Source of the DNA: Thermoleophilaceae bacterium
GTDB lineage: Bacteria > Actinomycetota > Thermoleophilia > Solirubrobacterales > Thermoleophilaceae
Direction: 5' to 3'
DNA: 47,546 nt
Assembly (NCBI GenBank): GCA_019683805.1
Contig: JADGHQ010000012.1
Location: 1 to 47,546 of the forward strand
A model generated the notes under the pieces. That model saw only the letters and a list, made by a program, of their open reading frames with translations, was not told the DNA's origin and did not search any database. Position numbers and translations under genes: made by a program. Positions 6,453 through 10,817 of the stretch are shown here, piece by piece; position 1 is the stretch's first letter, and every line of letters starts with the position of its first letter.

Positions 6453-7172
6453 TCAGCGGCCGTAGCGGTCCTTGGTCAGGACCAGCTTGTCGGGCAGCGC
6501 GGTACGCGGAGGCGGCGAGGGATCGGCAGCGACCGACACGGTCTCCGCGACGCTCTTCGTCACTGCGCAGCGCGACCCGTCGACCGCCTCGACCACCACC
6601 TCCTCGTCGCCGGTCGCGGCGACGACGCCCTCGAGCCCGGGAGAGAGCCCGGACTCCTTGAGGTAGTGCAGGAGGTCCTCCGCCTCGTTCTCGAAGCGCA
6701 GCACGCGCACCTTCGCCCCCTCCTCGACGTCGGCGAGGGGCACGCCCTCCTCGCGCGCGCCCTCCATGATCGGATGGCCGTGCGGGCAGGTCTTCGCGTC
6801 GCCGATCGCGGCCAGCATGCGCTCCTCGAGCCCGGGCGACATCGCGTGCTCGAGACGCTCCGCCTCCTCGTGCACCTCGTGCCACGGAATGCCGAGCACG
6901 TCCGTGAGGAAGCGCTCGATCAGGCGATGCCTGCGCACCACCGCGCTCGCGTGCCTGCGCCCGCTGTCGGTGAAGGCGAGCGACTTGTCCGCGTTGCGTC
7001 TCACGTAGCCGTCCGCCTCGAGCCGGCCCACCATCTCGTGCACCGTCGGCGCCGAGAGCTGCATGGCGCGCGCGATGTTCGCGCCCGTGATCGGCAGCCG
7101 AGCCTCCTCGAGCCAGTAGATCGTCTGCAGGTACTCCTCTTCGGCCGCGGTGGCTTGGTGATCGGTCGACAC
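6453..7172 (-). CDS. DtxR/MntR-family metal-dependent transcriptional regulator with FeoA-like domain
   Basis: The GTG at 7172 gives 239 residues. The N-terminal winged helix (EEEYLQTIYWLEE, then ITGANIARAMQLSAPTVHEM) is followed by the dimer and metal-binding region WHEVHEEAERLEHAMS, CPHGHPI and a C-terminal FeoA/SH3-like domain. Where iron-sensing DtxR and IdeR have Cys in EEACRWEH, this protein has Glu. That is closer to manganese-type MntR, so metal preference is open. The start is supported by AAGGAA six bases upstream and a TAGGAT box at 7201-7206 that would give a leader of about 20 bases. The best candidate operator in the window is at the iron permease 3 kb away. Confidence 0.88.
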   Translation of the reverse strand: MSTDHQATAAEEEYLQTIYWLEEARLPITGANIARAMQLSAPTVHEMVGRLEADGYVRRNADKSLAFTDSGRRHASAVVRRHRLIERFLTDVLGIPWHEVHEEAERLEHAMSPGLEERMLAAIGDAKTCPHGHPIMEGAREEGVPLADVEEGAKVRVLRFENEAEDLLHYLKESGLSPGLEGVVAATGDEEVVVEAVDGSRCAVTKSVAETVSVAADPSPPPRTALPDKLVLTKDRYGR

Positions 7173-7200
7173 GATTGCTTCCTTCGGGGTCCGAGCGCCC

Positions 7201-7206
7201 ATCCTA
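7201..7206 (-). promoter_or_regulatory. -10 box of the DtxR/MntR-type regulator
   Basis: TAGGAT read on the minus strand. Transcription should begin about 7 bases downstream, giving a short leader with AAGGAA before the GTG at 7172. It faces the ligase -10 box 20 bases away. Confidence 0.45.
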
Positions 7207-7226
7207 GACGTTCGGGCGCGCGCGAA

Positions 7227-7232
7227 TAGGAT
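7227..7232 (+). promoter_or_regulatory. -10 box of the ATP-dependent DNA ligase gene
   Basis: TAGGAT lies 6 bases before the ATG at 7239. No Shine-Dalgarno sequence fits in the gap, so the mRNA is probably leaderless. Confidence 0.5.
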
Positions 7233-7238
7233 GCGCTG

Positions 7239-8192
7239 ATGCCGCTCGAGCCACCCGTCAGCCCGCAGCTCGCGCGCTCCGCGAAGGAGCTGCCGGAGGG
7301 GCCCGGGTGGCGCTACGAGCCGAAGTGGGACGGCTTTCGGACGATCGCGTTCAAGCGCGGACCGGACGTGCGGCTGCAGAGCCGCAACGGCCGGCCGCTG
7401 AACCGCTACTTCCCCGAGGTGGTCGAGCAGGTGGCGGCGCTTCCGCACGAGGGGATCGTGCTCGACGGCGAGATGATCGTGGTGGTCGACGGCGTCCAGG
7501 AGTTCGACCTGCTGAGCCAGCGGATCCACCCTGCGGCCTCGCGCGTCGAGCGCCTCGCCCGCGAGACGCCAGCGGCGCTCGTCGCGTTCGACCTCCTCGA
7601 GCTCGACGACGAGCAGCTCCTCGACCTGCCCTACGACGAGCGGCGCGCGCGCCTCGAGGGCGCGATCTCAGGGCCGGTCCAGCTCACGCCCATGACCGCG
7701 GACCCGCGGGCGGCGCGGCAGTGGCTCACCGGCGCCTCCGAGGGGGTGGTCGCCAAGCAGGGCGGCGAGCCCTACCGGCCCGGCGAGCGCGCGGGGATGC
7801 TGAAGATCAAGCGCGTGCGCACCGCCGACGTCGTGGTGTCGGCGTTCCGCTTCGGCAAGGAGGAGGGGACGGTGGGATCCCTGATCCTCGGCCTCTACGA
7901 CGACGCCGGCAACCTGCGCGAGGTCGGCCACACCTCGGGCTTCAGCGCCCGGCAGAAGCGCGAGCTCGTGGCGCTGCTCGAGCCGTACAGGACCTACGAG
8001 CGCGGCTCCGGGGAGCCTTCGCGGTGGAAGTCCGAGGAGGAGCTCGTCTGGGAGGGCCTGCGCCCCGAGCTCGTCTGCGAGGTGGCGTTCGACCACATCA
8101 CCGGGCAGCGCATACGGCACGGCGCGAAGCTCCTGCGCTGGCGGCCCGACAAGCGGCCGGAGGAGTGCCGGATCGAGCAGCTCCGCGCGTGA
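7239..8192 (+). CDS. ligC: ATP-dependent DNA ligase (LigC / LigD ligase-domain type)
   Basis: This 317-residue ligase core has motif I YEPKWDGFR with K29 as the adenylated lysine, motif III LDGEMIV, motif IV EGVVAK and motif V LKIKR, then an OB-fold domain with RPELVCEVAFDH. Length and order match LigC, or the ligase module of LigD without polymerase or nuclease domains. It seals nicks in repair or end joining. It converges with a stand-alone LigD-type polymerase that ends 13 bases later, so the LigD activities are split into two genes here. No ku gene is in the window. Confidence 0.92.
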   Translation: MPLEPPVSPQLARSAKELPEGPGWRYEPKWDGFRTIAFKRGPDVRLQSRNGRPLNRYFPEVVEQVAALPHEGIVLDGEMIVVVDGVQEFDLLSQRIHPAASRVERLARETPAALVAFDLLELDDEQLLDLPYDERRARLEGAISGPVQLTPMTADPRAARQWLTGASEGVVAKQGGEPYRPGERAGMLKIKRVRTADVVVSAFRFGKEEGTVGSLILGLYDDAGNLREVGHTSGFSARQKRELVALLEPYRTYERGSGEPSRWKSEEELVWEGLRPELVCEVAFDHITGQRIRHGAKLLRWRPDKRPEECRIEQLRA

Positions 8193-8205: not shown

Positions 8206-9222
8206 CTAGGCCCGGCGCTTCCTCGCCCGCGAGGGCTGCACCCGCTTCGGCTCGCCCGCCTGCCTGGGGAAGTGCGGCGGCCAGGGCGCGTCGCCGAGGC
8301 CCTCGCGCTCGTCGCGCGCCGCCAGCTCGAGCAGGCCGTCGAGCGAGCCGACCGCGTCGTCGAGGCCGGCGCTCGGGTCGCCGACCTCCTTCAGCCGGGC
8401 GGGCACCGTGTCGAGCCGCAGGTCGCCGGGGTCGACGTCGGGCACCTCCTCCCAGGTGACGGGCGCCGACACGCGCGCGTCCTGGTTCGGCCGCACCGAG
8501 TACGCGGAGGCGACGGTGCGGTCGCGCGCGTTCTGGTTGTAGTCGACGAACACGCCGTGGCGCTCCTCCTTCCACCACTTCGAGGTGGCGCTCGCGGGCA
8601 TCCGCCGCTCGATCTCGCGCGCGAGCGCGAGCGCCGCCCGGCGGACCTCGGTGAACTCCCAGCGCGGCTCGATCCGCACGAGGATGTGCATGCCGCGCGA
8701 CCCCGACGTCTTCGGGAAGCCGGTCAGCCCGTGCTCCTCGAGCACCTCGCGCGCGCAGAGCGCCACGCGCCGGACCTCGTCGAAGCCGACGCCCGGGGTG
8801 GGGTCGAGGTCGACGCGCATCTCGTCGGGGTGGTCGCCGTCCGGCCGGCGGACCGGCCACGGGTTCCAGTCGATCACGCCGAGGTTCAGCCCCCAGGCCA
8901 GGTGCGCGCGGTCCTGCACCACGAGGAAGTTCGCGCTGCGGCCGCTCGGGAAGCGCAGCGTCATCTGCTCGAGCCACGGCGGCGCGGACCGCGGCACGCG
9001 CTTCTGGAAGAAGAACTCCTGCTCGATGCCGCCCGGGAAGCGCTTCATCGTGGTCGGGCGGTCGCGCAGGTGCGCGATGCAGGCGTCGGCCACGGAGAGG
9101 TAGTAGTCGAGCAGGTCCCCCTTCGTGTAGCCGCGCTGGGGGAAGTAGACCTTCCCGGGATTCGAGAAGCGCACCTCTCGACCGTCGAGCTCGAGCGTCA
9201 GGTAGTCGCCGCGCGGGGCCAT
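8206..9222 (-). CDS. LigD-type DNA polymerase/primase (PolDom), stand-alone
   Basis: The 338-residue archaeo-eukaryotic-primase-fold protein starts with the typical SNPGKVYFPQRGYTKGDLLDYY. It has the catalytic acid pair in MRVDLDPTPG, the FPKTSGSRGMHI nucleotide-binding loop, DYNQNARDRTVASAYSVR and SAPVTWEEV. This is the polymerase domain of LigD, which fills gaps with dNTP/rNTP during non-homologous end joining. The C terminus is a basic tail (RVQPSRARKRRA). It converges with the ligase gene and diverges from a macro-domain gene with only 17 bases between starts. A TATCCT box lies 6 bases before the ATG. Confidence 0.93.
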   Translation of the reverse strand: MAPRGDYLTLELDGREVRFSNPGKVYFPQRGYTKGDLLDYYLSVADACIAHLRDRPTTMKRFPGGIEQEFFFQKRVPRSAPPWLEQMTLRFPSGRSANFLVVQDRAHLAWGLNLGVIDWNPWPVRRPDGDHPDEMRVDLDPTPGVGFDEVRRVALCAREVLEEHGLTGFPKTSGSRGMHILVRIEPRWEFTEVRRAALALAREIERRMPASATSKWWKEERHGVFVDYNQNARDRTVASAYSVRPNQDARVSAPVTWEEVPDVDPGDLRLDTVPARLKEVGDPSAGLDDAVGSLDGLLELAARDEREGLGDAPWPPHFPRQAGEPKRVQPSRARKRRA

Positions 9223-9742: not shown

Positions 9743-10774
9743 CTAGGCGATCTGGTCGAGCAGCGCCGGCGGGCGCTCCGGGCGCATGGCCGGCTGCTCG
9801 CCGCGCTTGCGCGGCCGGCGCACCTTCAGGTGCTCGGCGACGAGGTAGGACCCGACCACGAGCAGGGCGGCGACCGCCTGCACCGCCAGCGTCTCCACCG
9901 ACGGCACGATCTCGAGCCAGCGGGCGAGCCAGCCCGGGAACGCGACGCCCAGGTCGTTCTCGGTGCCCGGCAGCCAGCCGAGGTCCTGGAACGAGCGGGC
10001 GGTGCCGCCGATCATCACGACGAGCACGAGGGCGATCAGCGCGCCGGTCACGACGAGCATGCGCCGGTAGGGCAGCCGCCGCTGGAGCTTGAAGGTGAGC
10101 AGTCCGACGAGCGCCGTGAGCGCGAGGCCGATGCCGGTCCCCTCGAGCACGGCGGACGTGCCGGCCTTGAGCTGGAGGTTCTGGAGGAAGAGCACCACCT
10201 CGAAGCCCTCGCGGTACACGGAGGTGAAGCCGAGCGCGACCAGGCCGAGCATCTGCGCGGAGAGCATCCCGCCGCGCTCCATCGAGAGGAGCTGCTTGCG
10301 GCGCCTGTGATGGTGCGCGATCCAGCCGGTCCAGTACACGCGGTGCAGGAACCAATTGAGGATCACGAGCAGGACGACCACCGCGATCAGCCCGGTGATC
10401 GCCTGCAGCTGGTCCCCGTAGTTCTCGGAGAACGCGCCGAGGATCGCCTGGAACGCGAACCAGGTGGCGACGCAGGCGGCGAACGCGGCGCCGGCGCCCG
10501 CGGCAACGGGGCGCTTGTAGGCGCTGTTCGCGCCGAGCATGCTCGCGGTGACCGCGGCGAAGATGAGCACGGCCTCGAGGCCCTCGCGGAAGACGATCAG
10601 CGAGGCGTCGACGACGATCTGGCCGCGCGAGGCGTGCGTGGCCGGATCGGTCGGGTCGGGCACGCCGCCCTGGGAGGTCGCCGCGAGCCACACCAGGACG
10701 CCGAGGATCGCGGCGCCAACCGCCCACGGGAGAAGGCGCCTTGCGCCTGAAAGCCGACTTGCTAGGTAGGACAT
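9743..10774 (-). CDS. efeU: FTR1-family high-affinity iron permease (EfeU-like)
   Basis: This 343-residue membrane protein has seven or so hydrophobic helices and the two signature acidic motifs, FREGLEAVL (helix 1) and YREGFEVVL (middle), which carry Fe through the FTR1/EfeU channel. An N-terminal hydrophobic helix and a HisArg-rich loop (AHHHRRRKQ) are also present. The C terminus is cytoplasmic and basic. The partners EfeO and EfeB are not adjacent. A 16-base palindrome begins one base 5' of the ATG and contains the likely -10 box, so metal-dependent repression is expected. Confidence 0.9.
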   Translation of the reverse strand: MSYLASRLSGARRLLPWAVGAAILGVLVWLAATSQGGVPDPTDPATHASRGQIVVDASLIVFREGLEAVLIFAAVTASMLGANSAYKRPVAAGAGAAFAACVATWFAFQAILGAFSENYGDQLQAITGLIAVVVLLVILNWFLHRVYWTGWIAHHHRRRKQLLSMERGGMLSAQMLGLVALGFTSVYREGFEVVLFLQNLQLKAGTSAVLEGTGIGLALTALVGLLTFKLQRRLPYRRMLVVTGALIALVLVVMIGGTARSFQDLGWLPGTENDLGVAFPGWLARWLEIVPSVETLAVQAVAALLVVGSYLVAEHLKVRRPRKRGEQPAMRPERPPALLDQIA

Positions 10775-10775
10775 T

Positions 10776-10791
10776 GTTAGGGAACCCTAAC
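10776..10791 (-). promoter_or_regulatory. palindromic operator with embedded -10 box at the iron permease
   Basis: GTTAGGG and CCCTAAC are perfect inverted arms around two A bases. The halves TTAGG/CCTAA match the half-sites of DtxR/IdeR/MntR-type boxes, but the spacing is shorter than in the classic 19-base IdeR box. Read on the minus strand it contains TAGGGT, 9 bases before the ATG. Repressor binding would therefore block the promoter of a probably leaderless mRNA. The two-base loop rules out a terminator hairpin. Confidence 0.7.
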
Positions 10792-10817
10792 AGATTCCCG
10801 CCGTGCGTGTCGAGATC

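What the first reader, a model, noticed from the sequence alone, without database searches (positions are those of the whole stretch)
10776..10791. Iron permease operator with the -10 box inside it
A perfect 7+7 palindrome with a two-base centre lies one base from the ATG of the FTR1 permease and carries the TAGGGT hexamer. TTAGG/CCTAA half-sites are DtxR-family in style, and a DtxR/MntR-type gene lies 3 kb away. The 16-base spacing differs from the 19-base IdeR box and may be a distinct class of metal box.
Basis: partly seen in the sequence, partly recalled or inferred. Interest (0 to 1): 0.65.

Follow-up and report, generated by a model that had tools for sequence, protein, structure and literature searches.

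The report
Single-dimer iron-regulator operator at FTR1
The short mirror-image DNA sequence in front of this iron-import gene is very probably the binding site for one pair of an IdeR-like iron-sensing protein, and a whole order of bacteria seems to run its iron genes with this half-length site, which had mainly been studied in the test tube.

Summary
The palindrome GTTAGGGAACCCTAAC at 10776-10791 is real. It sits one base from the FTR1 start codon and carries TAGGGT on the gene's strand. It is conserved: 21 of 30 FTR1 loci from the same order have TTAGG-N4-CCTAA (or a one-base variant) upstream, as do six Ktedonobacterales. In 40 genomes of the order, TTAGG-N4-CCTAA occurs 193 times against 9 for the reversed control. 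The adjacent genes form an iron regulon: FTR1, ZIP, siderophore and ferric transporters, imelysin, HtaA, ferritin, FeoB, VIT1. The window's genome has exactly two perfect sites, before FTR1 and a ZIP transporter. The 14-mer is not a new spacing: it is the single-dimer unit inside the 19-bp IdeR/DtxR box, which purified S. erythraea IdeR binds. The 19-bp spacing is absent here (1 match, 13 control); second sites lie 14 or 20 bp away instead. The likely regulator is the window's DtxR-type protein, whose orthologues diverge from ftr1 across these operators in two lineages. Where the site abuts the start codon, its first half doubles as the -10 box of a leaderless promoter. Binding, metal and repression are untested. 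The regulator has Glu where IdeR has Met10, Cys102 and Gln43, so its metal preference is open.

The parts
10776..10791 (.). Palindromic operator GTTAGGGAACCCTAAC; core TTAGG-N4-CCTAA at 10777-10790 = one-dimer DtxR/IdeR site
   Evidence: Sequence; conserved upstream of FTR1 relatives; 193 against 9 genome-wide in 40 genomes
10784..10789 (-). TAGGGT, probable -10 element (TANNNT type) inside the operator
   Evidence: Sequence; in 34 abutting sites the gene-oriented sixth -10 base is T in 29, its mirror base A in 9. Inference, no TSS data; the consensus scan did not report it
10808..10813 (-). TCGACA, possible -35 element, 18 bp upstream of TAGGGT
   Evidence: By eye (5 of 6 to TTGACA); not reported by the scan; not shown to be conserved. 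Weak
9743..10774 (-). FTR1/EfeU-type iron permease gene (343 aa), the regulated gene
   Evidence: PF03239 E 4.6e-19; TIGR00145 E 6.9e-28, below its cut-off; start supported by orthologues whose ATG also follows the palindrome
6453..7172 (-). DtxR/IdeR-like regulator (239 aa; HTH, dimerisation and FeoA/SH3-type domains), the proposed binder
   Evidence: PF01325, PF02742, PF04023; best solved relatives M. tuberculosis IdeR, E about 1e-30; orthologues diverge from ftr1 across the operators in other genomes

Best explanation
The palindrome is an iron-regulator operator bound by a single dimer of an IdeR-like DtxR-family protein, most likely the product of 6453-7172. When cell iron is high, the metal-loaded dimer binds TTAGG-N4-CCTAA. 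That covers the -10 element TAGGGT and the predicted start of a leaderless (0-3 nt leader) ftr1 mRNA, so RNA polymerase cannot start; when iron falls, the dimer leaves and the permease is made. Shown by sequence: the site, its conservation, its iron regulon, the absence of the 19-bp two-dimer box, and the genetic linkage of the regulator to the sites in other genomes. Inferred: which protein binds, that Fe(II) is the signal, that the effect is repression, and the transcription start.
For: Site present with N4 spacing only upstream of FTR1 in 21 of 30 order loci and six Ktedonobacterales. 193 sites against 9 control in 40 genomes, next to ZIP, FTR1, siderophore and Fe3+ binding proteins, imelysin, HtaA, heme PNPOx, DtxR, VIT1, FeoB, ferritin, SIP, FecCD. 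Own genome: two perfect sites, FTR1 and a ZIP transporter. Seven genomes of genus g37, and L059 from another lineage, have this regulator divergent from ftr1 with the site(s) between. The regulator keeps IdeR's base-contacting Ser37 (28/30), Pro39 and Thr40 (30/30). S. erythraea IdeR binds such a half site as one dimer, apparent KD 78 nM (PMC8464063). IdeR-repressed genes carry the box over the -10 or start site (PMC10317159). T at the sixth -10 position is strand-biased only in abutting sites: 22 against 2 discordant, p 4e-5; counting distinct sequences 11 against 2, p 0.02.
Against: No binding, expression or TSS data. The regulator has Glu in place of IdeR Met10, Cys102 and Gln43 in all 30 orthologues; Glu at the first two is closer to the Mn sensor MntR (PMC10317159). 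Its own gene has no site in the window genome. Genus g32 keeps the regulator but has 0-2 sites per genome. No orthologue was found in the site-bearing G014 (93% complete) or G076 (72% complete). Some FTR1 loci lack a site.
Confidence: 0.82

Rival explanations
1. The same operator, but the regulator answers mainly to manganese (or to both Mn and Fe) because its primary metal site is Glu/Glu/Glu/His, MntR-like.
For: Glu at the Met10 and Cys102 positions in 30/30 orthologues; MntR has Asp/Asn and Glu there (PMC10317159). ZIP and VIT families, both found next to sites, can carry Mn.
Against: The regulon holds HtaA, siderophore systems, SIP, ferritin, FeoB, which are iron or heme functions. The genome has a separate MntR-like protein with Asp/Glu at these positions.
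Confidence: 0.12
2. A Fur-family repressor binds the palindrome; the DtxR-type protein is only a neighbour.
For: A Fur-family gene and a VIT1 gene diverge around a one-mismatch site (TAAGGGCGCCCTAA) in the same genome.
Against: TTAGG/CCTAA with N4 is the DtxR/IdeR half-site pair (PMC8464063). The DtxR-type gene, not Fur, sits beside the ftr1 operators in two lineages.
Confidence: 0.04
3. The palindrome is chance or serves only as a promoter or translation signal.
For: In the window alone the match is not unusual at 3 mismatches, and TAGGGT is a plausible -10.
Against: Conservation, the 21-fold excess over control and the iron regulon; the second arm is conserved although a -10 box does not need it.
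Confidence: 0.01

Closest known systems
IdeR/DtxR 19-bp iron box (TTAGGTTAGSCTAACCTAA; PMC10317159)
   Same: Same TTAGG/CCTAA repeats, same N4 spacing within a dimer, iron genes, overlap with the -10 or start
   Different: Only one dimer unit; TTAGG-N9-CCTAA absent in 40 genomes; second sites 14 or 20 bp away, not 5; lineage preference for G at N1 and C at N4
IdeR half site TTAGGNNNNCCTAA of Saccharopolyspora erythraea (PMC8464063)
   Same: Identical 14-bp consensus, shown to bind one dimer in vitro
   Different: There the exception among 19-bp boxes (for example nuo); here the standard operator of a whole iron regulon, often fused to a leaderless promoter
MntR of Bacillus and of actinobacteria
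   Same: Glu at the Cys102 position; DtxR superfamily
   Different: Regulator here has the third (FeoA/SH3) domain, Ser-x-Pro-Thr recognition helix, Glu not Asp at position 10, and an iron regulon

Membership tests
IdeR/DtxR operator | TTAGG and CCTAA half sites 4 bp apart (one dimer) | tested here: met
   Window sequence; only N4 found upstream of FTR1 among spacings 0-13 except one 19-bp box in L100
IdeR/DtxR operator | Two overlapping dimer sites forming a 19-bp box | tested here: not met
   N9 pattern: 1 match, 13 control matches in 40 genomes; fourth half site within 1 mismatch in 2 of 127 sites
IdeR/DtxR operator | Lies at iron-homeostasis genes | tested here: met
IdeR/DtxR operator | Bound by a metal-activated DtxR-family protein | not testable with these tools
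   Needs gel shift
DtxR/IdeR regulator protein | HTH, dimerisation and SH3/FeoA-type domains | tested here: met
   PF01325, PF02742, PF04023
DtxR/IdeR regulator protein | Primary metal site Met10, Cys102, Glu105, His106 | tested here: not met
   Glu105 and His106 kept; Met10 and Cys102 are Glu in 30/30 orthologues
DtxR/IdeR regulator protein | Ancillary site His79, Glu83, His98 | tested here: met
   30/30; the SH3-domain ligands were not tested
DtxR/IdeR regulator protein | DNA contacts Ser37, Pro39, Thr40, Gln43 | tested here: inconclusive
   First three kept (Ser37 28/30), Gln43 is Glu in 30/30; PMC8464063 reports that Q43A keeps cooperative binding
MntR | Asp/Asn at position 10 and Glu at position 102 | tested here: not met
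   Glu at 10, Glu at 102; the paralogue at C26 has Asp and Glu
Fur box | AT-rich Fur-type inverted repeat | not tested
   No Fur motif scan was run; the site is a TTAGG/CCTAA palindrome by sequence

The most novel reading that the evidence does not exclude
A complete order of Actinomycetota runs its iron regulon on one-dimer operators only (single, or pairs abutting at 14 bp or spaced 20 bp), read by an IdeR-like subfamily with a Glu-Glu-Glu-His metal site and Glu43, and in many promoters the operator itself supplies the -10 box of a leaderless mRNA.
Probability: 0.6. Interest if true: 0.6.

Novelty: new variant of a known kind. Interest (0 to 1): 0.52.

Why it matters
A 2023 review of IdeR lists as open whether half sites occur in other species and what IdeR does at sites that bind only one dimer (PMC10317159). 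This order gives a natural system where the half site is the normal iron operator, so one-dimer repression, the effect of 14-bp pairing and the metal choice of a Glu-ligand sensor can be tested directly. The consensus also allows iron regulons to be predicted in these mostly uncultured soil bacteria.

Tried and rejected
Distinct new metal-box spacing: rejected, the spacing is that of one IdeR dimer. A hidden 19-bp box: rejected. Autoregulation of the regulator in the window: no site upstream of its gene. Sigma-70 consensus scan of the region: no hit, so the -35 is only by eye. Altered motif in genus g32 as a co-variation test: FTR1 upstream regions there show GGGTGCCC-type elements, but exact TTCGGGNNCCCGAA is enriched only in G078, so it proves nothing. 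Spread over the phylum is mixed and was not resolved by genes. Structure prediction was not run: domain matches and solved relatives already settle the fold.

Full report
What was checked. The palindrome GTTAGGGAACCCTAAC is at 10776-10791, perfect over 7+7 with centre AA, one base from the FTR1 ATG (10774), and on the gene's strand contains TAGGGT at 10789-10784. FTR1 is confirmed by PF03239. The DtxR-type gene is 6453-7172.

Conservation. Upstream regions of FTR1 relatives were scanned for TTAGG-N(0-13)-CCTAA, allowing A at the second base of either arm. Only N4 appears, apart from one Chloroflexota locus (L100) with a full 19-bp box. Of 30 FTR1 loci from the window's order, 21 have the site. 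Four of the other nine (L030, L032, L033, L035) are long fused proteins whose gene start is elsewhere, and two (L027, L029) have imperfect pairs (compare L128 and L143). Six Ktedonobacterales loci also have it (L043, L045, L061, L064, L065, L068), there placed between TTGACA and TAATAT.

Regulon. In 40 genomes of the order the exact 14-mer occurs 193 times, the reversed control 9 times; 39 of 40 genomes have at least one. The set was chosen partly for having FTR1, but also includes genomes without it. Genes beside the sites were called by a simple codon-bias script and scanned with Pfam: ZIP 9, FTR1 7, siderophore-binding 7, Fe3+-type binding proteins 6, imelysin 5, HtaA 4, heme PNPOx/DUF2470 3, DtxR-family 3, VIT1 2, FeoB 2, ferritin 2, SIP 2, FecCD 2 among 105 proteins. 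The window's genome has two perfect sites, FTR1 and a ZIP transporter with its ATG 14 nt downstream, and a one-mismatch site between VIT1 and Fur-family genes.

What the site is. TTAGG-N4-CCTAA is positions 1-14 of TTAGGTTAGSCTAACCTAA. In the S. [quoted passage not shown] IdeR binds a designed half site as one dimer with an apparent KD of 78 nM, and the authors propose TTAGGNNNNCCTAA as the redefined consensus (PMC8464063). The order does not use the two-dimer arrangement: TTAGG-N9-CCTAA has 1 match against 13 control matches in the same 40 genomes, and only 2 of 127 sites have a fourth half site within one mismatch. Second sites occur instead exactly 14 bp (11 cases) or 20 bp (5 cases) away, with 0.004 expected per offset. 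Some of these come from related genomes, so the counts are not all independent.

Regulator. The genome has two DtxR-family genes. The window's one has orthologues at 62-83% identity in 31 of 32 and 20 of 21 genomes searched; none was found in G076 or G014. In seven genomes of genus g37, and in L059 of a different lineage, it is divergent from ftr1 with the operator(s) between. It keeps IdeR's Ser37 (28/30), Pro39, Thr40 and the ancillary ligands His79, Glu83, His98, but has Glu at positions 10, 43 and 102 in all 30 orthologues compared. The other paralogue has Asp10/Glu102 and is MntR-like. So the protein works like IdeR but fails two defining ligand tests, and I do not file it as IdeR proper.

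Mechanism. In 34 of 138 oriented sites the start codon lies within -1 to 6 nt of the 14-mer. There is no room for a Shine-Dalgarno after the site, and a -10 element TAGGNT in the first arm would place the transcript start at about the last base of the 14-mer. Consistent with this, gene-oriented T at position 7 is found in 29 of 34 abutting sites while its mirror base A at position 8 is found in 9; at more distant sites the two are equal (25/21 and 22/23). The discordant count is 22 against 2 (p 4e-5; for distinct sequences 11 against 2, p 0.02). Start codons were assigned by script, so the class borders are approximate. A bound dimer would cover the -10 and start, the usual repressor position of IdeR boxes (PMC10317159).

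Limits. No binding, metal or expression data exist for this organism. Genus g32 keeps the regulator but has almost no perfect sites, which is unexplained. Literature was searched only in the open-licence library; the exact consensus string occurs there in one paper only. From memory, archaeal DtxR-type motifs of similar length have been reported in subscription journals; I could not check them.

Noticed in passing
L003:965-1996 (own genome, contig C94): A VIT1-type exporter gene and a Fur-family gene diverge around the one-mismatch site TAAGGGCGCCCTAA, so iron efflux and a second metal regulator may belong to the same circuit.
   Followed up: partly
window 7173-7238; L121, L122, L129, L135, L149: The DtxR-type gene is divergent from an ATP-dependent DNA ligase gene in the window, and the upstream sequence reads like the same ligase N-terminus in several relatives. 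The short intergenic stretch in the window carries two TAGGAT boxes facing opposite ways.
   Followed up: no
L191:872-1501 (-), L207:1522-2151 (+): Genes that look like ribosomal protein S4 without the usual N-terminal cysteines start 3 nt from a half site in two genomes; such paralogues are usually linked to zinc limitation (from memory).
   Followed up: no
G030, G036, G072 (loci L280-L294): Genus g32 keeps the regulator, four of its five genomes add a paralogue about 52% identical, and it has 0-2 perfect half sites per genome; FTR1 upstream regions show GGGTGCCC or TTCGGG-type elements instead.
   Followed up: partly
L011, L023, L024, L028, L034 upstream of FTR1: A second inverted repeat, roughly TTCCGA-N(6-10)-TCGGAA, lies near the iron half site in several loci.
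   Followed up: no
window 8206-9222 and 7239-8192: A LigD-polymerase-like gene and an ATP-dependent ligase gene lie convergently between the regulator and FTR1, resembling a bacterial end-joining locus (by sequence resemblance only).
   Followed up: no
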